A DNA stretch of 64,000 nucleotides from an uncultured Bacteroidales bacterium. Lineage in GTDB: Bacteria; Bacteroidota; Bacteroidia; Bacteroidales; UBA932. Positions 4,158 to 15,206 of the stretch are shown piece by piece. The stretch covers positions 1 through 64,000 of the forward strand of contig CALUSM010000012.1 in assembly GCA_944323445.1 (NCBI GenBank), read 5' to 3'. Numbering within the stretch: the first letter of the stretch is position 1; each line of letters opens with the position of its first letter. The notes below the pieces were generated by a model. The model made no database searches, had not been told where the DNA came from, and was given only the letters and a program-made list of their open reading frames with translations. Made by a program: the position numbers and the translations under genes.

Positions 4158-4679
4158 ATGAGAAAAGCCAGCAGGGAAATGCCCGCGGAATGGGCTCTGG
4201 AGGTCATGCGTAAGGCCCCGTACATCACAGTAAGTTTCACCCGGGAGGACGGTACTGCCTATGGTCTTCCGCTGTCGCTGGCTTCCGCCGGGGAGGACGG
4301 GCGGGTGTGGTATTTTCACTGCGCCCGGGAAGGGGAGAAGCTCGGGGCGATTGCAGCGCATCCTGAAGTCTGTCTTTCTGCGGTAAGCAAATGTTCTCCG
4401 ACCGTAGGGCCCAAGGACGGCTCATTCACCCTCCAGTACCATTCGGCAGTCGCTTTCGGAAGGGCGGAAACAGTAAAGGACGAAGCCGAGAAAATCCATG
4501 CTCTCCGCCTCATCTGCGAACGTTTCCTGCCCCGGCACATGGACGCATTCGACGAGTCGGTCCGCCGCAGCCTGTACCGTACTGCCGTGGTCCGCATAAC
4601 CCTTACCGCACCGCCTACGGGCAAGCGCAAGCAGTACGACAGGGAAGGGGAGGAGATGAAGTACGGGCGGATGGAGTAG
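4158..4679 (+). CDS. Pyridoxamine 5'-phosphate oxidase-family flavoprotein (NimA-like)
   Basis: 173 residues from the ATG at 4158; an in-frame ATG at 4095 lies before the TATTTTTG promoter box (4127-4134) and is rejected. The split beta-barrel FMN-binding fold is indicated by APYITVSFTREDGTAYGLPL near 20-40, VWYFHCAREGEKLGAI near 50-65 and a late VVRITL strand followed by a basic tail. This group includes 5-nitroimidazole-reductase-like proteins and heme or F420/FMN-binding oxidoreductases; the exact activity is unknown. It ends in a good terminator and is a single gene. Confidence 0.8.
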   Translation: MRKASREMPAEWALEVMRKAPYITVSFTREDGTAYGLPLSLASAGEDGRVWYFHCAREGEKLGAIAAHPEVCLSAVSKCSPTVGPKDGSFTLQYHSAVAFGRAETVKDEAEKIHALRLICERFLPRHMDAFDESVRRSLYRTAVVRITLTAPPTGKRKQYDREGEEMKYGRME

Positions 4680-4702
4680 GATTACGGTGTCCACTGCGCA
4701 CT

Positions 4703-4738
4703 GCCGGACCGGAAGCGTCCGGCAAGATTCTTTTTTTT
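4703..4738 (+). terminator. Rho-independent terminator after the pyridoxamine-oxidase-like gene
   Basis: A 7-bp stem GCCGGAC/GTCCGGC (4703-4709 and 4717-4723) with a 7-nt loop is followed by AAGATTC and a run of eight T. The T-run merges with the -33 box of the next promoter. Confidence 0.8.
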
Positions 4739-4766
4739 GGTTGGAACGGAAGTTTGTCTATATTTG
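4736..4766 (+). promoter_or_regulatory. Promoter of the corrinoid-uptake operon
   Basis: TTTG at 4736-4739 and TATATTTG at 4759-4766, separated by 19 bp, fit the Bacteroidetes -33/-7 consensus. The TTTG is the end of the upstream terminator's T-tract. Confidence 0.75.
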
Positions 4767-4771
4767 CGCCG

Positions 4772-4962
4772 CTGAAAGTTTCCTGTCCGCCGCTCTGCGG
4801 TGGAGGAATTAAAAGGGAACCGGGTGAGAATCCCGGACAGTTCCCGCTGCTGTAATTTCCACGTCCTTCGGGACGGAAGTCACGCGGTAATCTCTTTAGC
4901 CACTGCCTTATGAGGTGGGAAGGCTGCCGCGATGAGGAATAAGTCAGAAGACCTGCTTTCAA
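4772..4962 (+). ncRNA. Cobalamin riboswitch
   Basis: Conserved cobalamin-riboswitch elements occur in order: AGGGAACCGGGTGAGAATCC with CCGGACAGTTCCCGCTGCTG following (4814-4853), GCCACTG (4899-4905), GGGAAGGCTGCCGCG (4917-4931) and AAGTCAGAAGACCTGC (4941-4956). It lies between the promoter and btuB, where adenosylcobalamin or a related corrinoid would be expected to repress the operon. The ends are approximate. Confidence 0.95.
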
Positions 4963-5090
4963 CTTGGACTGTCTGCCCTGCGGGAGTACGGGTGCGGCAA
5001 TGCTGAATGGTTTTCTTCTTCAGGAACAGACAGTCTGCCCTTGTGCCGTATGGTACGGGGAAATCCCGGGAGTTGGAAAATTATTTGGCA

Positions 5091-7148
5091 ATGAATTATA
5101 AGAAAGCAGGTACAGTTTTACCTATCATCACGCTCATGCTGTCTCTGACAGCCGCGCTCCGGGCCCAGGACGGAATCCCGGAGACACCCGTCGATACCCT
5201 CGGCGAGGTGGTGGTCACAGCTGAGCGGATAAGAGAAATCGTGCCGGCACAGAGACTGTCCGGACAACAGCTCCAAAGGCTTAGTTCCAATTCGATAGCC
5301 GATGCCCTCCGCTATTTCTCAGGCGTGCAGATCAAGGACTATGGCGGCATAGGGGGCCTGAAGACGGTCAATGTCCGCAGTCTCGGCAGCCAGCACGTAG
5401 GGGTATTCTACGACGGTATACAGATATCCAATGCCCAGAACGGGACGGTGGATCTGGGCAAGTTCTCCATGGACAATATGGAGGTACTGTCGGTATATAA
5501 CGGGCAGAAGAGCGATATATTCCAATCTGCCAGGGACTATGCCTCTGCGGCAGCGCTGTATATGGTCTCGCGGAGGCCTAAATTCAGCGGAGACAGACGG
5601 AACAATCTGAATTTCAAGTTGCGCAGCGGCCCATTCGACCTCATCGACTTCTCGGGCCTGTGGGAGCACCGCCTGGGCCGGTATTTCAGCACCTCGGTCA
5701 ATGCGGAATTTCTCAGTACGTCAGGGCGCTACAAGTTCCGGTACCAGAGGGACGGAGGCTACGACACGACCGAGGTGCGCCGCAACGGGGACGTGATGTA
5801 TGTCAGGGCGGAAGCGGGCCTGTTCGGGCAGATGCCGGGGACGGACTTCATGCTCAAAGGCTATTTCTACTGGTCGGAGAGGGGCTACCCCGGGGCGGCG
5901 GTCAAGGAGGACTACGGCATATCGCTTCTGAACGAGGACCGGCAGAAGGACCGCAATATCTTCGTGCAGTCGGCGGTTACGCACCGGGCGGCGGATTTCT
6001 ACAGTTTCAAGCTACAGGCCAAATATGCCAATGATTACATGAACTACACAATGCCTCCGCACAGTACCCTCCAGCCGATGGACAATCATTACTGGCAGCA
6101 GGAGCTTTACCTGACCACCTCGCACCTTTTCTCGGCCGGTAGGATCTGGAGCGCCAATCTCTCCTGCGACCTTCAGTGGAACAGTCTGGAAGCAGACGGT
6201 ACGGAGATGTTCAATGCCAATTTCATCCGGCCGCGCAGGCTGACCGTCCTCTCGGCAGCGGCCACCTCGGTCAATTTCGGATTCGGTCTCAGCGCCCAGG
6301 CCAGCCTGCTCTACACCTGCGTCCATGATGTCAGCAAGCGTGGCATGGAGACGGCCGGGGACAAGAACGAGTGGACTCCCACGGTGATAGTCTCCTATAC
6401 TCCGTGGAAGAGGGCAGGCCTGAGCCTGAGGGCTTTCTACAAGAAAATCTTCCGCATGCCTACTTTCAACGACCTGTACTACGTCCAGCTGGGCAACCGC
6501 AACCTCAAGCCCGAATATACCACCCAGTACAACTTGGGCGCGGCTTATAAAAAGACCTGGCGCCACAACTGGTTCACCGGACTGCAGGCCAGTGTGGATG
6601 TGTACTACAACACCGTAAAAGACAAGATTATAGCCACCCCTACCTCGAATCAGCTTGTGTGGACTATGGTCAACCTGGGATACGTGGAGATCCGCGGTGT
6701 GGATGTCTCCGTGACTCCTTCGTTGCGCTTCGGACCGGTCAATGTATCGGCCAGGCTGAACTACACCTGCCAGAAGGCCCAGGACTTCACTGACAGTAGA
6801 AAAGAGGAAGGATATGAGGGAGTCATCAGCACATACGGCGACCAGATACCTTACGTGCCGCTGCACAGCGGATCGGCTGTGGTGAGCGTCAGTTACCGGA
6901 CCTGGGACTTCCACTACAGCTTCGTCTACACCGGTGAGAGATACATGCTGGGCGGCAATGTACCGGTCAACTACATCCAGCCCTGGTACACGAGCGACCT
7001 CTCAGTCTCAAAAATATTCCGCATAAAGAAGATGGACATAGGGGTGACTGCGGAGGTAAACAACATCTTCAACCAGCAGTACGAGGTGGTGAAGTGGTAT
7101 CCCATGCCGGGCACTAATTTCAGAATAACATTAAGTCTTGCAATATGA
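5091..7148 (+). CDS. btuB: BtuB-type TonB-dependent corrinoid receptor
   Basis: 685 residues from the ATG at 5091; an upstream in-frame ATG at 5007 lies in the riboswitch tail and is not preceded by a signal. A signal peptide is present (LPIITLMLSLTAALRAQ), then a TonB-box-like DTLGEVVVTAER near residues 36-47, a plug domain (SSNSIADALRYFSGVQIKDYGG, VNVRSLG, YDGIQISNAQNG), and a 22-strand-type barrel ending in an aromatic-rich terminal strand (NFRITLSLAI). Control by a cobalamin riboswitch and linkage to a BtuG-like lipoprotein identify the substrate as corrinoid. It would sit in the outer membrane and be powered by TonB; no BtuCDF inner-membrane transporter is in this window. The stop overlaps the next gene's ATG by 4 bp. 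Confidence 0.93.
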   Translation: MNYKKAGTVLPIITLMLSLTAALRAQDGIPETPVDTLGEVVVTAERIREIVPAQRLSGQQLQRLSSNSIADALRYFSGVQIKDYGGIGGLKTVNVRSLGSQHVGVFYDGIQISNAQNGTVDLGKFSMDNMEVLSVYNGQKSDIFQSARDYASAAALYMVSRRPKFSGDRRNNLNFKLRSGPFDLIDFSGLWEHRLGRYFSTSVNAEFLSTSGRYKFRYQRDGGYDTTEVRRNGDVMYVRAEAGLFGQMPGTDFMLKGYFYWSERGYPGAAVKEDYGISLLNEDRQKDRNIFVQSAVTHRAADFYSFKLQAKYANDYMNYTMPPHSTLQPMDNHYWQQELYLTTSHLFSAGRIWSANLSCDLQWNSLEADGTEMFNANFIRPRRLTVLSAAATSVNFGFGLSAQASLLYTCVHDVSKRGMETAGDKNEWTPTVIVSYTPWKRAGLSLRAFYKKIFRMPTFNDLYYVQLGNRNLKPEYTTQYNLGAAYKKTWRHNWFTGLQASVDVYYNTVKDKIIATPTSNQLVWTMVNLGYVEIRGVDVSVTPSLRFGPVNVSARLNYTCQKAQDFTDSRKEEGYEGVISTYGDQIPYVPLHSGSAVVSVSYRTWDFHYSFVYTGERYMLGGNVPVNYIQPWYTSDLSVSKIFRIKKMDIGVTAEVNNIFNQQYEVVKWYPMPGTNFRITLSLAI

Positions 7149-8293
7149 AAAAATGGTTTGTAATAATTACGGCAGCCGCAGTACTCTGCAGTTGCCGCGG
7201 CGACTGGCCAGTACTGTCCTCCGAGCCGGTGGAAGTCAATCCCGGGGATTCCGTCTCCGGCGATATCCGCGGTTTCTTCCTGCTCAATGAGGGCAATATG
7301 GGCAGCAACAAGGCTTCGTTGGACTACTACGACTACTCCTCGGGAGTGTACACGCGCAACATCTACGGAGAGCGCAATCCCGACGAGGTGAAGGATCTGG
7401 GAGATGTCGGCAACGACATCGGGATATACGGTGGAAAGTTGTGGGCGGTGATCAACTGCTCCAATTACGTGGAGGTTATGGATGTGCAGAGCATCAGGCA
7501 TATCACCAAGATAGCCGTGCCCAACTGCCGCTATCTGGCCTTCAAGGGCAGGTATGCGTATGTAAGTGCCTACGCCGGTCCTGTGAAGATTGACCCGGAT
7601 GCCCGCATAGGCATGGTGGTGAAGATTGACACTTCCAGCCTTCAGATAGTGGACTCATGCATAGTGGGCTACCAGCCGGAGGAGATGGCTGTAGTCGGCG
7701 ACAAGCTGTATGTGGCCAACTCCGGCGGCTACAGGGTGCCGGACTATGACAGCACTGTGTCTGTCATCGACCTGGCAAGTTTTAAGGAACTGTACAGGAT
7801 ACCCGTGGGCATCAACCTGCACCGTCTGGAGCCTGACCTCCACGGCAACCTGTATGTCTCCTCCAGAGGTGACTACTACAGCGTACCTTCCAGGACCTTT
7901 ATCATCGATACCAGGACGGACATCTGCACAGATACCCTGGACCTGCCCAACAGCAGCATGACCCTCCGCGGAGACTCTCTCTACGTATGCAGCAGCGGAT
8001 TCAACTACGGGACTCAGGACTGGAGTGTCTCATACGCAATATTCAACACAGTGACGCGGCAGACAGTCACCCGCAGCTTTATCGCAGACGACGTGAGGAT
8101 CAGTACCCCTTACAGCATAGCTGTCCATCCCGTGACCGGCGAGATCCTGATAACGGATGCCGGAGACTATGTCAGTCCGGGTACCCTGCACTGCTTCTCT
8201 TCTGACGGCAGGCGCAAGTGGTCAGTAACCACCGGAGATATCCCGGCACACATTGTATTCACACGTAAACCATTGCTTTATACGACACCATGA
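7145..8293 (+). CDS. btuG: BtuG-like surface lipoprotein, beta-propeller
   Basis: 382 residues. The lipoprotein signal ends AAAVLCSC, so the mature N-terminus would be lipidated Cys. The body is a series of propeller blades: GFFLLNEGNMGSNKASLDYYD near 43-63, DVGNDIGIYGGKLWAVINCS near 85-105, then repeats of the form VGDKLYVANSGG and RGDSLYVCSSGF. In Bacteroides a lipoprotein of this kind, BtuG, binds vitamin B12 very tightly and caps BtuB. The arrangement here (riboswitch, btuB, 4-bp overlap, propeller lipoprotein) matches that unit. The assignment as BtuG is by family and context; corrinoid contacts cannot be confirmed by eye. Confidence 0.85.
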   Translation: MKKWFVIITAAAVLCSCRGDWPVLSSEPVEVNPGDSVSGDIRGFFLLNEGNMGSNKASLDYYDYSSGVYTRNIYGERNPDEVKDLGDVGNDIGIYGGKLWAVINCSNYVEVMDVQSIRHITKIAVPNCRYLAFKGRYAYVSAYAGPVKIDPDARIGMVVKIDTSSLQIVDSCIVGYQPEEMAVVGDKLYVANSGGYRVPDYDSTVSVIDLASFKELYRIPVGINLHRLEPDLHGNLYVSSRGDYYSVPSRTFIIDTRTDICTDTLDLPNSSMTLRGDSLYVCSSGFNYGTQDWSVSYAIFNTVTRQTVTRSFIADDVRISTPYSIAVHPVTGEILITDAGDYVSPGTLHCFSSDGRRKWSVTTGDIPAHIVFTRKPLLYTTP

Positions 8294-9261
8294 GACATTC
8301 TGTAATTTATGCGACGTGGCTAGTGGCCATAGTTCTGACAGCCTGCAGTAAGGAAAAGGCCGGAAAGGACGCAACTCCCTACATCACCGAAGTATTCGAA
8401 TATATGCCGGCCCCCGGTCAGTTTGTCAATACTATGCCCCTCTATGAGGAAGGCGACACACAGGAGACAATGAACCGGAAAGTCCTGGAGGCCATCGGGA
8501 ACAACAACCGCGGGCTGATCTCCCTCGGCGGCTGGGGCGGATATGTGGTGGTGGGATTTGACCATACGATCGAGAACCGGGAGGGGCTGTGCGACTTCCG
8601 GGTGCTGGGCAATGCATTCGGGGACGAGGGGGGAAGCAGCGAGCCGGGTATCATCATGGTCTCCGTCGATGCCAACGGCAACGGGCTGCCCGACGACCCA
8701 TGGTATGAGATAGCCGGAAGTGCTCATATCGACCCTGCACAGGAAGCCTGGTATCAGGCTGCAAGGGACAACGGCAATGACGTGGCCCTTCACCCGGACT
8801 ACAGTATGACGTACCTGCGTCCGGAGCAGGAAGCGGCAGCCTCCGAAGAGGAGGAATACATCCTTTGGGAGGATATCCTGGGCCGTCGGGGCAGCATCCC
8901 GAAAAACAAGTATCACACCCAGCCCTATTTCCCGCAGTGGTACGGGGAGGACAGGCTCTCTTTCAGTGGCACCTGCCTGCCTCAGAACGGTATCGACGAG
9001 AGCGGGGAGGGGACATACTACGTCCTCTATAAGTTCCGCTACGGCTATGCGGACAATGACACCAATTCCGGTATCGGATCGGCCGTCGACATATCCTGGG
9101 CCGTGGACAGCAGGGGCCAAAGCGTGGACCTGCCTGGAGTGGATTTCATCCGGATCTATACCGGGGTCAATCAGGTAAACGGCTGGTTAGGCGAGTGCTC
9201 CACTGAGATAATGGGAGTGGAGGACCTCCATCTGCTTGGAGAAGAGATAGCAACTGATTAA
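8290..9261 (+). CDS. Cell-surface lipoprotein of the corrinoid-uptake locus
   Basis: 323 residues with a lipoprotein signal (VAIVLTACSKE). The body contains APGQFVNTMPLYEEGD, then LGGWGGYVVVGFDHTIENREG and DFRVLGNAFGDEGGSSEPGIIMVS, a pattern of secreted Bacteroidetes surface proteins with a beta-sandwich. VDANGNGLPDDPWYEIAGS contains a calcium-loop-like DANGNGLPDD. Later YVLYKFRYGYADNDTNSG and VDISWAVDSRGQ follow. It overlaps btuG by 4 bp and is therefore cotranscribed under the riboswitch. A role in corrinoid or protein capture on the cell surface is inferred from position only. Confidence 0.8.
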   Translation: MRHSVIYATWLVAIVLTACSKEKAGKDATPYITEVFEYMPAPGQFVNTMPLYEEGDTQETMNRKVLEAIGNNNRGLISLGGWGGYVVVGFDHTIENREGLCDFRVLGNAFGDEGGSSEPGIIMVSVDANGNGLPDDPWYEIAGSAHIDPAQEAWYQAARDNGNDVALHPDYSMTYLRPEQEAAASEEEEYILWEDILGRRGSIPKNKYHTQPYFPQWYGEDRLSFSGTCLPQNGIDESGEGTYYVLYKFRYGYADNDTNSGIGSAVDISWAVDSRGQSVDLPGVDFIRIYTGVNQVNGWLGECSTEIMGVEDLHLLGEEIATD

Positions 9262-9295
9262 ACACACATATCGTAACATTTTAACATTAAAGAAC

Positions 9296-10750
9296 ATGAA
9301 CAAAGGAATTTATTTGAAGAGCCTGGTCCTGGCTCTCGCCGCAGCAGGCTGTATTGCCGGCCTGACTTCATGCACTGGTAAAAACGGCCCTGTCTATGAG
9401 GATCCTGTATTCGAACTGGATACCTCTGCCGACAATCCGGTGCTGCTTGTATCTGAAGAAACGTATGTCCTGACCTATCATGCGGAGGGGATAAGCACCG
9501 TAACATTGGAAGACGTGCCGGAGGGTTGGCAGGCATCAGTGGACGGGGAGGCCGGCCGCATCTATGTCACAGCCCCTTCCGCCACTGCCGGTACTGCCGA
9601 TTATAACCTGAAACTGACTGTTACTGGAAACGACGGAGAGAGCACCACGGTCGGTGGCGTCAGTTTCCACCGGGTCACATTCGACGGGGCAGGGGGAACA
9701 TTTGTCCTGAATGAGGGAAACATGACCACTGAAAACGGCTCGCTCATCTACATCACTCCCGAGGGTTACGTCGTGGATACCGCCTACCGCCGCGTCAATG
9801 GCACTGACCTGGGCAATGTAGCGCAGGACATGTGTTTCCACGACGGGAAAATATACATAATCTCACAGAACGGGGATACCAACCCCGAGGGAACTTCATT
9901 CGAGAATGACGGAATGCTGGTAGTGGCTGACGCCGTGACTCTGAAGAAAGTGAGGAGTCTTACCAAAGAGCAGCTTCCGGGTCTGGACTGGCCGACGCAC
10001 ATAGCCGTGATAGACGAGCAGCATGTGTACATCAGGGACAACAAAGGGGTGTGGCGCCTGAATATGGACGATGTCTCGCTGACTTTCATATCGGGTACGG
10101 AAGGGGCACCGAAGTCCAGGTTTGCAGTAACCGGCGGCGAGGTATATTTTCCTCAGAACGGCCTGTTGTGCGCACTGAAGAAGATAGATCCGGCCACAGA
10201 CCAGGTTTCCTCAGTAGCGGAGTACGCCTTCTGGGCCACCCCGTACATGGTTAATTATTTCCTCGGCATAGCTCCGGCGGATGACGGATGTCTCTGGGCA
10301 ATATGCACTTCCGCAATGGATGGAGAAGGAGGGCAGATTACCCTGAACAAGGTTGATCCGGCGGCCTCCACCGTTACCCAGAACCTGCTCAGTGCCCAAC
10401 CTGATGCTGTCTACAGCTGCTGCATGGCTGCCAGCGGCAACACCGTCTACTATGCTTCCGGGACCATGGTGTACCGTGCTGTATTTGATCCGGAAGCCGG
10501 AGAAGGAGATGTGACTGACGAAGTCCTGACAGACCTCTTCAACCTTGACGGCAATGCGGTACAGCTGTACAACGGCCTTGGTGTCAATCCCATTACCGGC
10601 CACGTCTTCATCAACACGATAAAGGGTTTCGGCAATTTCTTCACCACCAACTCCATCTGGGAGTTCGACTTCAGCAGCAGCCTGGACATACCGGTGCGCA
10701 GGATAGACGACCTTACTCATTTTCCCGCAGGATTTTATTTTAATGAATAA
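9296..10750 (+). CDS. Propeller-type lipoprotein with N-terminal Ig-like domain (DUF5074-like, BtuG-related)
   Basis: 484 residues. The lipoprotein signal ends AGCIAGLTSCTG. Residues ~35-125 look like an immunoglobulin-type beta domain (YVLTYHAEGISTVTLEDVPEG). The rest repeats the propeller start seen in the btuG-like gene: GTFVLNEGNMTTENGSLIYI near 136-155 and TDLGNVAQDMCFHDGKIYI near 176-195. So it appears to be a paralogous propeller with an extra stalk domain. It follows the previous gene after 34 bp and is probably in the same riboswitch-controlled transcript. The ligand is unknown; a second corrinoid-binding or accessory surface protein is plausible. Confidence 0.8.
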   Translation: MNKGIYLKSLVLALAAAGCIAGLTSCTGKNGPVYEDPVFELDTSADNPVLLVSEETYVLTYHAEGISTVTLEDVPEGWQASVDGEAGRIYVTAPSATAGTADYNLKLTVTGNDGESTTVGGVSFHRVTFDGAGGTFVLNEGNMTTENGSLIYITPEGYVVDTAYRRVNGTDLGNVAQDMCFHDGKIYIISQNGDTNPEGTSFENDGMLVVADAVTLKKVRSLTKEQLPGLDWPTHIAVIDEQHVYIRDNKGVWRLNMDDVSLTFISGTEGAPKSRFAVTGGEVYFPQNGLLCALKKIDPATDQVSSVAEYAFWATPYMVNYFLGIAPADDGCLWAICTSAMDGEGGQITLNKVDPAASTVTQNLLSAQPDAVYSCCMAASGNTVYYASGTMVYRAVFDPEAGEGDVTDEVLTDLFNLDGNAVQLYNGLGVNPITGHVFINTIKGFGNFFTTNSIWEFDFSSSLDIPVRRIDDLTHFPAGFYFNE

Positions 10751-10752
10751 TC

Positions 10753-12021
10753 ATGAACAGCAGAAATTTACCTTATATCCTCATGACCGCCGCCATGCTG
10801 ATTGCGGCCTGCACTGACAATCCCTCTCCGGACACCCCGGAGGGGGAAGATCCCGACGTTCCCCCCGTCTCCGGACTTACCGGCTATGCCGATCCCGAAG
10901 GAGTCCTCCTGCTGAGCGGCGGTGAATACACTATGGAGAATGCCTTCCTCACCTTCATTGCACCCGACGGAACATTGGAAAACCGGGTGTATGCGTCTGC
11001 AAACGCTTCGGAACTGGGCAACGACGGGGTAGGAATGTCCATGAGCGAAGGGAAGCAGTATATCCAGTGCAATGACTGGCGCAGGGCGGAAGGAAAGGAG
11101 TACAACGGCCTTCTCATCGTGGCGGATGCGCAGACCCTCCGGAAGGAACAGTCTTTCTCCAGGGCACAAATGACATTCCGGCATCCCGTCAACGGCACTA
11201 TGGAGGAAGTGGACGAGAGTCTGGGCGGTATCGCTGTGCTGGACAGCCGCAATGTCTTCATATTTGCGCAGGGTGTGCTGCGCTTCGACTGTTCCACCGG
11301 CGGGCTGAGTCTCGTCGAAGGCTCCTATGAGATAGGCAATATGGGGACAGCCAATACGGTGGAATCTACAGTCTCGCCCAGAGGCGCGACTGTAGTCGAC
11401 GGACGTATGTATGCCCTGGCAGGAGGGTTCTGGTCTTCTACGGCCCTGCTGGAGTTTTCAAAGGGTGAGGATGCTGTCAGCCGCCGTCTGGAGCTGGGAA
11501 AGGGCGACCTGGTCAGCGGCATGTGCCGGACAGAGGACGGCACTCTCGTTGCTGCCACCTACTACCGTAGCCGTCCTAATTCAGGCTTCCTGTATTTTAT
11601 CGATGTGGAGAGTTGGAGCATAGTCGACCAGAAGACTGTCACAGCCAATATATCTCCCGGCACCCATTCCAACTCCGGTATCACCCGTATCGGTGATTAT
11701 ATCTATTTTACAGGGGCAGAGGAATCGGAGTTCTCCTCCAGTCTGAAGACCACCCTCAGCCGTTTTTCCCTCGGAACCGGGAGGACGGAGAAGGACATAG
11801 TGGATTTCAGGGCCGACGAGCCGGATGCCAATATCCTGGACTGCAATGTGACAGGCGACCCGGACTCAGGGCTTCTCTATGTAGCTGTATCCCAGGAGAA
11901 CATGGAGGGAGTCGTTCCCCAATCCCATATTCTGGTCTATGACTGCAGCGTGGATCCGCCGCAGCTTGTCAGAAAAATCAGCGGTCTCACTCATTATGTC
12001 ACGGGCATCTATCCGATGTGA
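10753..12021 (+). CDS. Third propeller-type lipoprotein of the corrinoid locus
   Basis: 422 residues with a lipoprotein signal (MTAAMLIAACTDN) and a proline/aspartate-rich linker. The propeller begins GVLLLSGGEYTMENAFLTFI near 49-68, aligned with FVLNEGNMTTENGSLIYI of the preceding protein but with NEG replaced by SGG. ASELGNDGVGMSMSEGKQYI near 84-103 corresponds to the LGNVAQDMCFHDGKIYI blade. The gene begins 2 bp after the previous stop. It is a diverged paralogue; the changed NEG motif may mean a different ligand. The remains of a Crp/Fnr gene begin 3 bp after its stop. Confidence 0.8.
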   Translation: MNSRNLPYILMTAAMLIAACTDNPSPDTPEGEDPDVPPVSGLTGYADPEGVLLLSGGEYTMENAFLTFIAPDGTLENRVYASANASELGNDGVGMSMSEGKQYIQCNDWRRAEGKEYNGLLIVADAQTLRKEQSFSRAQMTFRHPVNGTMEEVDESLGGIAVLDSRNVFIFAQGVLRFDCSTGGLSLVEGSYEIGNMGTANTVESTVSPRGATVVDGRMYALAGGFWSSTALLEFSKGEDAVSRRLELGKGDLVSGMCRTEDGTLVAATYYRSRPNSGFLYFIDVESWSIVDQKTVTANISPGTHSNSGITRIGDYIYFTGAEESEFSSSLKTTLSRFSLGTGRTEKDIVDFRADEPDANILDCNVTGDPDSGLLYVAVSQENMEGVVPQSHILVYDCSVDPPQLVRKISGLTHYVTGIYPM

Positions 12022-12024
12022 GGC

Positions 12025-12114
12025 ATGCCGGAAGCATCCCTGGATCTTCTTGCAGGGGAGATGGACGAGGTTTCATATCCGAGGGGAACGCAGATTCTCA
12101 AAGCAGGAAGCTCA
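12025..12114 (+). pseudogene. N-terminal remnant of a Crp/Fnr regulator
   Basis: From the ATG at 12025 the frame reads LAGEMDEVSYPRGTQILKAG, which aligns with LAGQLEEIHCPKGTYILKAG of the regulator at 159. After about 30 codons the homology stops, and the sequence continues directly into the 3' end of the convergent SMR gene. Everything from the sensory core through the DNA-binding domain is missing, so an internal deletion of roughly 500 bp relative to copy A is inferred. The frame runs on to a TGA at 12178-12180 antisense to the SMR gene. Confidence 0.75.
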
Positions 12115-12435
12115 GGATACCATCTTCAGTCCGATGATGGAGACGATGAGGGTGGTTATAAAGAGCAGGCGCAGGAATGAGGCGGACTCGTGAAAGAATA
12201 TGATACCGAGAATGACCGTGCAGACAGCTCCTATCCCGGTCCATACCGGATATGCCGTGCCTATCGGAATGGTCTTTACCGCCTTGGCAAGCAGTACCAT
12301 GCTCATTGTCAGACAGAACAGAAAGCCTCCTCCCCACAGCCACCATGCAGTGCCAGTGACTTCCTTCATCTTTCCCAGACAAAACGCAAATCCGGATTCA
12401 AAAAAACCGGCGATAATCAGGATAATCCAGTTCAT
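12112..12435 (-). CDS. SMR family membrane protein, copy B
   Basis: 107 residues from the ATG at 12435. Four helices, with MNWIILIIAGFFESGFAF, GTAWWLWGGGF and TIPIGTAYPVWTGIGAV, the same signatures as copy A at 732-1058. An upstream in-frame ATG at 12576 would place 47 unrelated residues in front and run through the promoter, so it is rejected. Its stop now overlaps the remains of the convergent Crp/Fnr gene. Inner-membrane exporter; the substrate is unknown. Adjacent differing SMR genes in one genome sometimes work as heterodimers; whether A and B do so is unknown. Confidence 0.9.
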   Translation of the reverse strand: MNWIILIIAGFFESGFAFCLGKMKEVTGTAWWLWGGGFLFCLTMSMVLLAKAVKTIPIGTAYPVWTGIGAVCTVILGIIFFHESASFLRLLFITTLIVSIIGLKMVS

Positions 12436-12464
12436 AAATCTAATTTTCAGAATTTTAAGGGCTG

Positions 12465-14633: not shown

Positions 14634-15206
14634 CTACAGCATTTTCTCATACGCCATGCGCTCGCCTGCCTCATACCGGATGCGGCCGCAGTAGGTGAAG
14701 CCGAGGCGGGAGAAGACGCGCTGCATGTAGAAGTTGTCGTAGTTGGTGTCGACTTTGAAGCTGCGGATGCCGCGGGAGATGGCTAAGTCGCAGACTGCCT
14801 GCATGTAGCGGACGGCCATGCCATGACGTTTCCATGAGTCGGCGACCGCCAGCCGGTGCAGTACCACATAGGGCTGTCCGCTCAGCCATTTCCCGTCCCG
14901 CAGACCGTCATACGCAGGTTCTCCGTCAAAGACTACCGCTCCGTAGGCTATGATGTCCGGCTCCGGCTGTGTACTGCAGTTATCCGGTACGAGCACGTAT
15001 CCCCAGCCGCGCCGCACGTCGTTCTCCAATATCGGCACGGTAGGGTAGTTCTCGTCCCACTGGTGCTTGCCCTCGCGGTACATCTGGGCCTTGGCCTGCA
15101 GGATGATTTCCCAGATGGCCGGAACCTCTTCCATCGTCGCCGGCCGCAGGATATATCCGTCACTGGCAGTCTGTGTATATACGTCAGCAGCTATTTTCTT
15201 GTTCAT
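14634..15206 (-). CDS. GNAT family N-acetyltransferase, copy B (intact)
   Basis: 190 residues from the ATG at 15206, which gives MNKKIAADVYTQTASDG and then YILRPATMEEVPAIWEII, a normal GNAT N-terminus with its first strand. The acetyl-CoA-binding part is VLHRLAVADSWKRHGMAV near 118-135, and the C-terminal NFYMQRVFSRLGFTYCGRI strands follow. An upstream ATG at 15311 is rejected because the added residues are unlike the family and run across repeats. It transfers an acetyl group from acetyl-CoA to an unknown small molecule or amine. Copy A at 2397 is its truncated duplicate. Confidence 0.88.
   Translation of the reverse strand: MNKKIAADVYTQTASDGYILRPATMEEVPAIWEIILQAKAQMYREGKHQWDENYPTVPILENDVRRGWGYVLVPDNCSTQPEPDIIAYGAVVFDGEPAYDGLRDGKWLSGQPYVVLHRLAVADSWKRHGMAVRYMQAVCDLAISRGIRSFKVDTNYDNFYMQRVFSRLGFTYCGRIRYEAGERMAYEKML
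14678..15134. repeat. Direct repeat unit B (GNAT duplication)
   Basis: Counterpart of 2441-2897, same orientation, offset 12,237. The right boundary at 15134 falls inside the intact gene. Confidence 0.85.

What the first reader, a model, noticed from the sequence alone, without database searches (positions are those of the whole stretch)
4736..12021. Corrinoid-uptake locus with three propeller lipoproteins
Downstream of the riboswitch and btuB are a BtuG-like propeller, another lipoprotein and two further propeller proteins that share the NEGNMTxxNGSL-type first blade (one with SGG in place of NEG). The usual unit has one BtuG. Three related caps in one transcript could bind different corrinoids or exploit one receptor in different ways.
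Basis: partly seen in the sequence, partly recalled or inferred. Interest (0 to 1): 0.7.

Follow-up and report, generated by a model that had tools for sequence, protein, structure and literature searches.

The report
B12-uptake operon: one cap, two helpers
A gut bacterium's vitamin B12 uptake operon carries three related propeller-shaped surface lipoproteins, but only one looks like the lid of the B12 transporter; the other two resemble a recently described accessory pair (BtuK1/BtuK2), in which the first partner probably grabs B12 and the second has lost a residue that the known B12 binders keep.

Summary
A cobalamin riboswitch (4759-4974) is followed by btuB, a BtuG propeller, a BtuH lipoprotein (not a propeller) and two DUF5074 propellers, tightly packed, with one Bacteroidetes-type promoter match. 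The reading "three caps" does not hold. Only P0002 groups with BtuG. P0004 and P0005 fall on the BtuK side of the family tree. Their AlphaFold models (pLDDT 91/94) match solved BtuK1 best, clearly for P0004 and tied with BtuG1 for P0005. In B. theta the tandem partner BtuK1 binds cobalamin and BtuK2 did not (PMC12751083). The blade-1 Glu of NEG is kept in 35/35 BtuG-type and 54/54 P0004-type proteins but in 1/29 P0005-type proteins, as in non-binding BtuK2. The set recurs: 21 contigs carry btuB-btuG-btuH-K1-K2. P0005-type genes were never found without a P0004-type neighbour, and several K1(-K2) units sit behind their own riboswitch without btuB. In a sister species btuB-btuG is deleted while riboswitch-btuH-K1-K2 is 97% intact; in others the cassette after btuG is BtuJ-BtuH instead. 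So H-K1-K2 behaves as an exchangeable accessory corrinoid-capture cassette. No binding was tested.

The parts
4735..4766 (+). probable promoter: TTTG (-33 like, about 4735-4738) and TATATTTG (-7 type, TAnnTTTG) at 4759
   Evidence: Only TAnnTTTG match on the + strand in 4500-12100; one or two are expected by chance, so weak by itself; placed directly at the riboswitch start
4759..4974 (+). cobalamin riboswitch (RF00174), complete aptamer
   Evidence: cmscan 102.6 bits, E 1.5e-24
5091..7148 (+). btuB, TonB-dependent corrinoid transporter (P0001)
   Evidence: Pfam TonB barrel and plug; TIGR01779 E 2.5e-28 but below its cut-off; only full-length copy in the genome
7145..8293 (+). btuG, propeller lipoprotein, the cap of BtuB (P0002); Glu49 of NEG kept
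   Evidence: E 9e-44 to BtuG1 8blw_B; groups with BtuG, one side of a branch at 97; overlaps btuB by 4 nt
8290..9261 (+). btuH, B12-binding lipoprotein domain protein (P0003), not a propeller
   Evidence: E 3.6e-61 to BtuG1 H domain, 6.3e-41 to BtuH2 7biz; overlaps btuG by 4 nt
9296..10750 (+). BtuK1-like lipoprotein (P0004): Ig-like domain plus DUF5074 propeller; Glu140 of NEG kept
   Evidence: DUF5074 1.2e-50; AF2 pLDDT 91.4; best structure BtuK1 9s6c Z 32.3, rmsd 2.5, 308 aligned; 34 nt after btuH
10753..12021 (+). BtuK2-like lipoprotein (P0005): DUF5074 propeller without Ig domain; Glu of NEG replaced by Gly56
   Evidence: DUF5074 6.3e-17; AF2 pLDDT 93.6; BtuK1 Z 29.8, tied with BtuG1 28.9; 2 nt after P0004

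Best explanation
This is a B12-repressed corrinoid-uptake operon with one transporter and one cap. BtuB is the outer-membrane transporter and P0002 (BtuG) its hinged lid. P0003 (BtuH), P0004 (BtuK1-like) and P0005 (BtuK2-like) form an exchangeable accessory cassette of surface lipoproteins. When corrinoid is scarce the riboswitch lets the whole unit be made. BtuH and P0004 most likely capture corrinoid on the cell surface (or on vesicles) and hand it to BtuG/BtuB. P0005 is a paired paralogue that has probably lost ordinary cobalamin binding at the BtuG-type site and serves P0004 in another role (handover, docking, vesicle loading, or a different ligand). Shown here: gene order, families, folds, recurrence, strict pairing, purifying selection, riboswitch linkage independent of btuB. 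Inferred: that P0004 binds corrinoid (about 0.65), that P0005 does not bind cobalamin in the usual way (about 0.55), and the order of handover.
For: Riboswitch; BtuG; BtuH; DUF5074; models and structural matches to BtuK1/BtuG. The BtuK1/BtuK2 tandem in a B. theta-like locus was identified by 8e-188 to 9s6c 'BtuK1' and 3e-201 to 4r5o BT1487. Literature: BtuK1 binds with SPR Kd 8.9e-11 M, BtuK2 no binding (PMC12751083). Glu column: BtuG type 35/35, P0004 type 54/54, P0005 type 1/29. Recurrence: 59 loci with K1, 35 with K2, 0 K2 without K1, 21 complete B-G-H-K1-K2. In 201 Bacteroidaceae genomes 12 have K1 and 9 of these an adjacent K2. Own riboswitch directly before K1(-K2) without btuB: L052, L055, L063, L065, L077, L085. 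Deletion of btuB-btuG in L033 with riboswitch-H-K1-K2 kept at 97% and omega 0.19 / 0.24. Cassette swap after btuG in sister species.
Against: No binding data for any protein here. P0004/P0005 are not shown to be orthologues of BtuK1/K2: the B. theta pair sat on long branches on the BtuG side, and the BtuK grouping comes from the smaller tree. By sequence profile P0004 scores slightly better to BtuG than to BtuK1. P0004 lacks the Trp194-equivalent of BtuG2 while P0005 keeps it, so the Glu rule may not be the whole story. The role of that Glu in contacting cobalamin was not checked on coordinates. Purified BtuK2 failed one column assay only. Siderophore-binding XusB is also a propeller lid (PMC13142918), so fold alone does not fix the ligand.
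Confidence: 0.62

Rival explanations
1. One reading: all three propellers are corrinoid caps that compete for, or share, one BtuB, each tuned to different corrinoids.
For: Three homologous propellers in one probable transcript; P0004 keeps the blade-1 Glu; strongly acidic proteins, charge -10.8, -37.6, -27.9, as for BtuG2 at -13.3.
Against: P0004/P0005 are split from BtuG at support 97; they recur without btuB behind their own riboswitch and survive loss of btuB-btuG; P0005 lacks the Glu. BtuG2 is reported to bind many corrinoids because the lower ligand does not contact it (PMC10404256), which removes much of the need for specialised caps.
Confidence: 0.13
2. P0004 and P0005 form a heteromeric two-propeller unit, one site made by both or a handover pair, in which the Glu-less P0005 is an obligate partner rather than a failed binder.
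For: P0005 type never found without an adjacent P0004 type; both under purifying selection, omega 0.15-0.24; P0005 family keeps a Trp194-equivalent in 25/29 and conserved Cys at three sites.
Against: P0004 type often occurs without P0005 type (24 of 59 loci), so it does not need the partner; adjacency may reflect only tandem duplication; no interaction test.
Confidence: 0.2
3. P0004/P0005 act on something other than corrinoids (siderophore or another ligand) and merely ride in the operon.
For: Propeller lids of other Bacteroidota systems bind siderophores (XusB, PMC13142918).
Against: Direct riboswitch control in several genomes without btuB and co-occurrence with BtuG/BtuH in most contigs; nearest solved structure is B12-binding BtuK1.
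Confidence: 0.05

Closest known systems
BtuK1/BtuK2 of Bacteroides thetaiotaomicron (BT_1486/BT_1487; PDB 9s6c, 4r5o)
   Same: Tandem pair of DUF5074-type propeller lipoproteins in a cobalamin-riboswitch locus with btuH and btuB; first keeps NEG Glu and binds B12, second lost it and did not bind
   Different: Here the pair follows btuH at the 3' end of a B-G-H operon rather than leading K1-K2-H1-B1-GH-J1; only about 20% and 12% identity in the structural alignments to BtuK1; P0005 has no Ig/PKD domain; a common clade of the second members (P0005 type plus BtuK2) is weakly rejected (AU p 0.0365)
BtuG1/BtuG2/BtuG3, caps of BtuB
   Same: P0002 is a BtuG; P0004/P0005 share the fold and blade-1 region
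   Different: P0004/P0005 lie on the other side of the tree, P0004 has an Ig-like N-domain, and both occur without btuB
BtuH (BtuH2, H domain of BtuGH)
   Same: P0003 matches over nearly its whole length; P0002+P0003 equal BtuGH split in two genes (fused in L040-L042)
   Different: no PKD domains, unlike BtuH2
BtuL (BT_1955), vesicle-promoting lipoprotein
   Same: lipoprotein in a B12 locus without cobalamin binding
   Different: the BtuL equivalent in the B. theta-like genome is a Receptor-L/LRR protein, not DUF5074
XusB, siderophore-binding propeller lid
   Same: propeller lipoprotein lid on a TonB-dependent transporter
   Different: DUF4374, iron system, not riboswitch-B12 linked

Membership tests
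BtuG (P0002) | sequence homology to solved BtuG and BtuG-clade membership | tested here: met
   E 9e-44 to BtuG1; BtuG one side of a branch, support 97
BtuG (P0002) | lipoprotein encoded next to btuB under cobalamin riboswitch | tested here: met
   4-nt overlap with btuB, lipobox LCSC, riboswitch upstream
BtuG (P0002) | stable complex with BtuB and femto- to picomolar corrinoid binding | not testable with these tools
   needs protein work
BtuG (P0004, P0005) | member of BtuG clade | tested here: not met
   with BtuK1/K2 on the other side of the branch, support 97
BtuH (P0003) | homology to the B12-binding BtuH domain | tested here: met
   E 3.6e-61 and 6.3e-41
BtuK (P0004) | Ig/PKD-like domain plus DUF5074 propeller lipoprotein in a cobalamin-riboswitch locus | tested here: met
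   DUF5074 E 1.2e-50; N-terminal strand-rich domain, residues 20-109 of the model; VIA Z 32.3 to BtuK1. Pfam PKD itself was not hit
BtuK (P0004/P0005) | orthology to BtuK1/BtuK2 | tested here: inconclusive
   same side of the tree, long branches on the BtuG side; one clade of P0005 type plus BtuK2 rejected at p 0.0365
BtuK1 | binds cobalamin | not testable with these tools
   indirect: NEG Glu 54/54
BtuK2 (P0005) | tandem partner lacking the NEG Glu | tested here: met
   1/29 keep Glu; always next to P0004 type
Cobalamin riboswitch RF00174 | score over gathering cut-off, full model | tested here: met
   102.6 vs 31.5 bits, 1-189/189
BtuL | Receptor-L/LRR architecture of the BT_1955 equivalent | tested here: not met
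   for the equivalent; P0004/P0005 are DUF5074

The most novel reading that the evidence does not exclude
The K1-K2 pair is a genuine two-protein unit: a Glu-keeping propeller that binds corrinoid and a Glu-less, never-alone partner with its own conserved cavity that receives, releases or selects corrinoid. Such pairs may have arisen twice (P0004/P0005 type and BtuK1/BtuK2). This would make the 'inactive' second propeller a recurring functional partner in B12 scavenging and explain why it is kept.
Probability: 0.22. Interest if true: 0.62.

Novelty: new variant of a known kind. Interest (0 to 1): 0.42.

Why it matters
B12 competition shapes gut communities, and the many extra lipoproteins in Bacteroidota B12 loci are mostly unexplained. 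The locus shows a modular logic: a conserved riboswitch-BtuB-BtuG core with exchangeable capture cassettes (H-K1-K2 or J-H). It links an uncharacterised, widespread DUF5074 pair to the newly described BtuK proteins, and gives a simple residue-level hypothesis (Glu of NEG) for which propellers bind B12.

Tried and rejected
(1) P0003 as a fourth propeller or unknown lipoprotein: it is BtuH. (2) P0004 as BtuL: the BtuL equivalent is a Receptor-L/LRR protein. (3) DUF4465/BtuJ for any gene here: no hit; BtuJ-type genes occur in the sister operons instead. (4) Aromatic cavity residues of BtuG2 (Trp194, Tyr239, Trp272, Tyr316, Tyr335; numbering fixed by an offset of 13) as a binding test: not informative, since BtuG1 itself lacks several and the alignment is gappy there. 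(6) Internal sigma-70-like promoters and terminators: counts equal shuffles. (7) The text of PMC10404256 does not name the hydrogen-bonding residues, so contact by the NEG Glu could not be checked. (8) The first ORF-based neighbourhood table missed genes hidden by antisense ORFs; it was replaced by tblastn.

Full report
WHAT IS THERE. The window belongs to a Candidatus Coprenecus-like Rikenellaceae genome: its P0004 gene matches two named Coprenecus MAGs at 97-98%. A complete cobalamin riboswitch lies at 4759-4974, the only one in the held genome (89% complete). Behind it are btuB, P0002, P0003, P0004 and P0005, with 4-nt overlaps, then a 34-nt and a 2-nt gap. The only Bacteroidetes-type TAnnTTTG element on the + strand between 4500 and 12100 sits at the riboswitch start. 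One transcript is therefore likely but not shown. The genome has one full-length BtuB and one FecCD-type permease, on another contig, and two B12-binding-domain proteins, so this appears to be its only outer-membrane corrinoid route.

WHAT EACH GENE IS. P0002 is BtuG (9e-44 to BtuG1). P0003 is BtuH (3.6e-61 to the H domain of BtuG1): P0002 and P0003 are the fused BtuGH of B. theta in two genes, and relatives L040-L042 have them fused. P0004 and P0005 are DUF5074 proteins. Their AlphaFold models are confident (pLDDT 91.4 and 93.6). P0004 carries an Ig-like domain before the propeller; P0005 does not.

NOT THREE CAPS. A B. theta-like genome (G066) was used to read the known loci. Its locus 1 has the order K1-K2-H1-B1-GH-J1, and K1 and K2 match 9s6c, deposited as BtuK1, at 8e-188 and 4r5o, BT1487 = BtuK2, at 3e-201. 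BtuK1 is PKD plus DUF5074; BtuK2 is PKD plus a diverged propeller. VIA-align puts BtuK1 first for P0004 (Z 32.3, rmsd 2.5, 308 aligned; BtuG1 29.4) and first but tied for P0005 (29.8 vs 28.9). In a 46-row tree the BtuG rows are one side of a branch and P0004, P0005, BtuK1, BtuK2 the other, support 97. In the larger quick tree the B. theta pair moved to the BtuG side on long branches, so orthology is left open. By sequence profile P0004 is about equally near BtuG and BtuK1.

BINDING CLUE. BtuK1 binds cobalamin (SPR Kd 8.9e-11 M) and BtuK2 did not in the same assay series (PMC12751083). The Glu of the blade-1 NEG/SEG motif (Glu55 in B. theta BtuG2 numbering, offset checked) is present in BtuG1, BtuG2, BtuG3 and BtuK1 and absent in BtuK2. 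Across relatives it is 35/35 in BtuG type, 54/54 in P0004 type and 1/29 in P0005 type. This predicts that P0004 binds and P0005 does not bind in the same way. It is a correlation; the contact was not inspected.

RECURRENCE AND PAIRING. tblastn of 59 contigs fetched with P0004 gives 35 with a P0005 type, 21 with complete btuB-btuG-btuH-K1-K2, 19 with btuB-btuG-btuH-K1 only, and none with K2 alone; the last is partly by construction. A search of 201 Bacteroidaceae genomes with the P0005 profile does not share that bias: 9 strong hits, each next to a P0004 type, while 12 genomes have a P0004 type. In L052, L055, L063, L065, L077 and L085 an Rfam-verified riboswitch stands directly before K1(-K2) with no btuB in the fetched stretch.

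A NATURAL DELETION AND A CASSETTE SWAP. L033 (C. stercorigallinarum) is 97% identical to the window on both sides of btuB-btuG but has lost 5117-8239; scraps of btuB and the last bases of btuG remain, and riboswitch-btuH-K1-K2 is intact. K1 and K2 there are under purifying selection relative to the window (omega 0.19, 0.24); the same genome has two other btuB-btuG operons. Conversely L107, L109, L112 and L117 share the riboswitch/btuB/btuG block (79-85%; L117 from within btuB) up to 8274, close to the end of btuG, and then carry a DUF4465 (BtuJ-type) gene and a PKD-BtuH gene instead. btuB and btuG group with the genus or other Rikenellaceae and Dysgonomonas, while P0004/P0005 nest with Bacteroides and Phocaeicola. 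The simplest reading is an exchangeable accessory module behind a fixed core. In both settings the module's job is best explained as extra corrinoid capture rather than capping.

LIMITS. No binding, interaction or transcript data; MAG assemblies; sampling of contigs through six P0004 peptides; low sequence identity makes pocket alignment uncertain beyond blade 1. BtuK names come from one 2025 paper and PDB titles.

Noticed in passing
738-1063 and 12115-12440; 2398-2910 and 14635-15147: Direct repeats flank the operon: an SMR/EmrE-type gene (78% DNA identity) and a GNAT gene (97.5%) occur on both sides; they may have served recombination at this locus.
   Followed up: partly
L033 8875-8946 versus window 5117-8239: Deletion of btuB-btuG in C. 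stercorigallinarum with scraps of btuB left.
   Followed up: yes
L107, L109, L112, L117 downstream of btuG: Sister species carry DUF4988-DUF4465 (BtuJ-type with an added N-domain) and a PKD-BtuH gene at the same place.
   Followed up: partly
P0005 family, P0005 residues 258, 364, 398 (window 10753-12021): Cys conserved in 26 of 27 sequences; residue 364 appears to align with Tyr316 of BtuG2, which lines the upper-ligand cavity. Meaning unknown.
   Followed up: no
L060 4769-7067: Two consecutive BtuG-type genes, the second divergent (NEGTFG), before btuH-K1-K2: a possible true four-propeller operon.
   Followed up: no
L097 4391-6385: Orphan DUF5074 lipoprotein of 664 aa with a CEGNMSSANGT motif in a B. 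theta-like genome, outside the B12 loci; its ligand is unknown.
   Followed up: no
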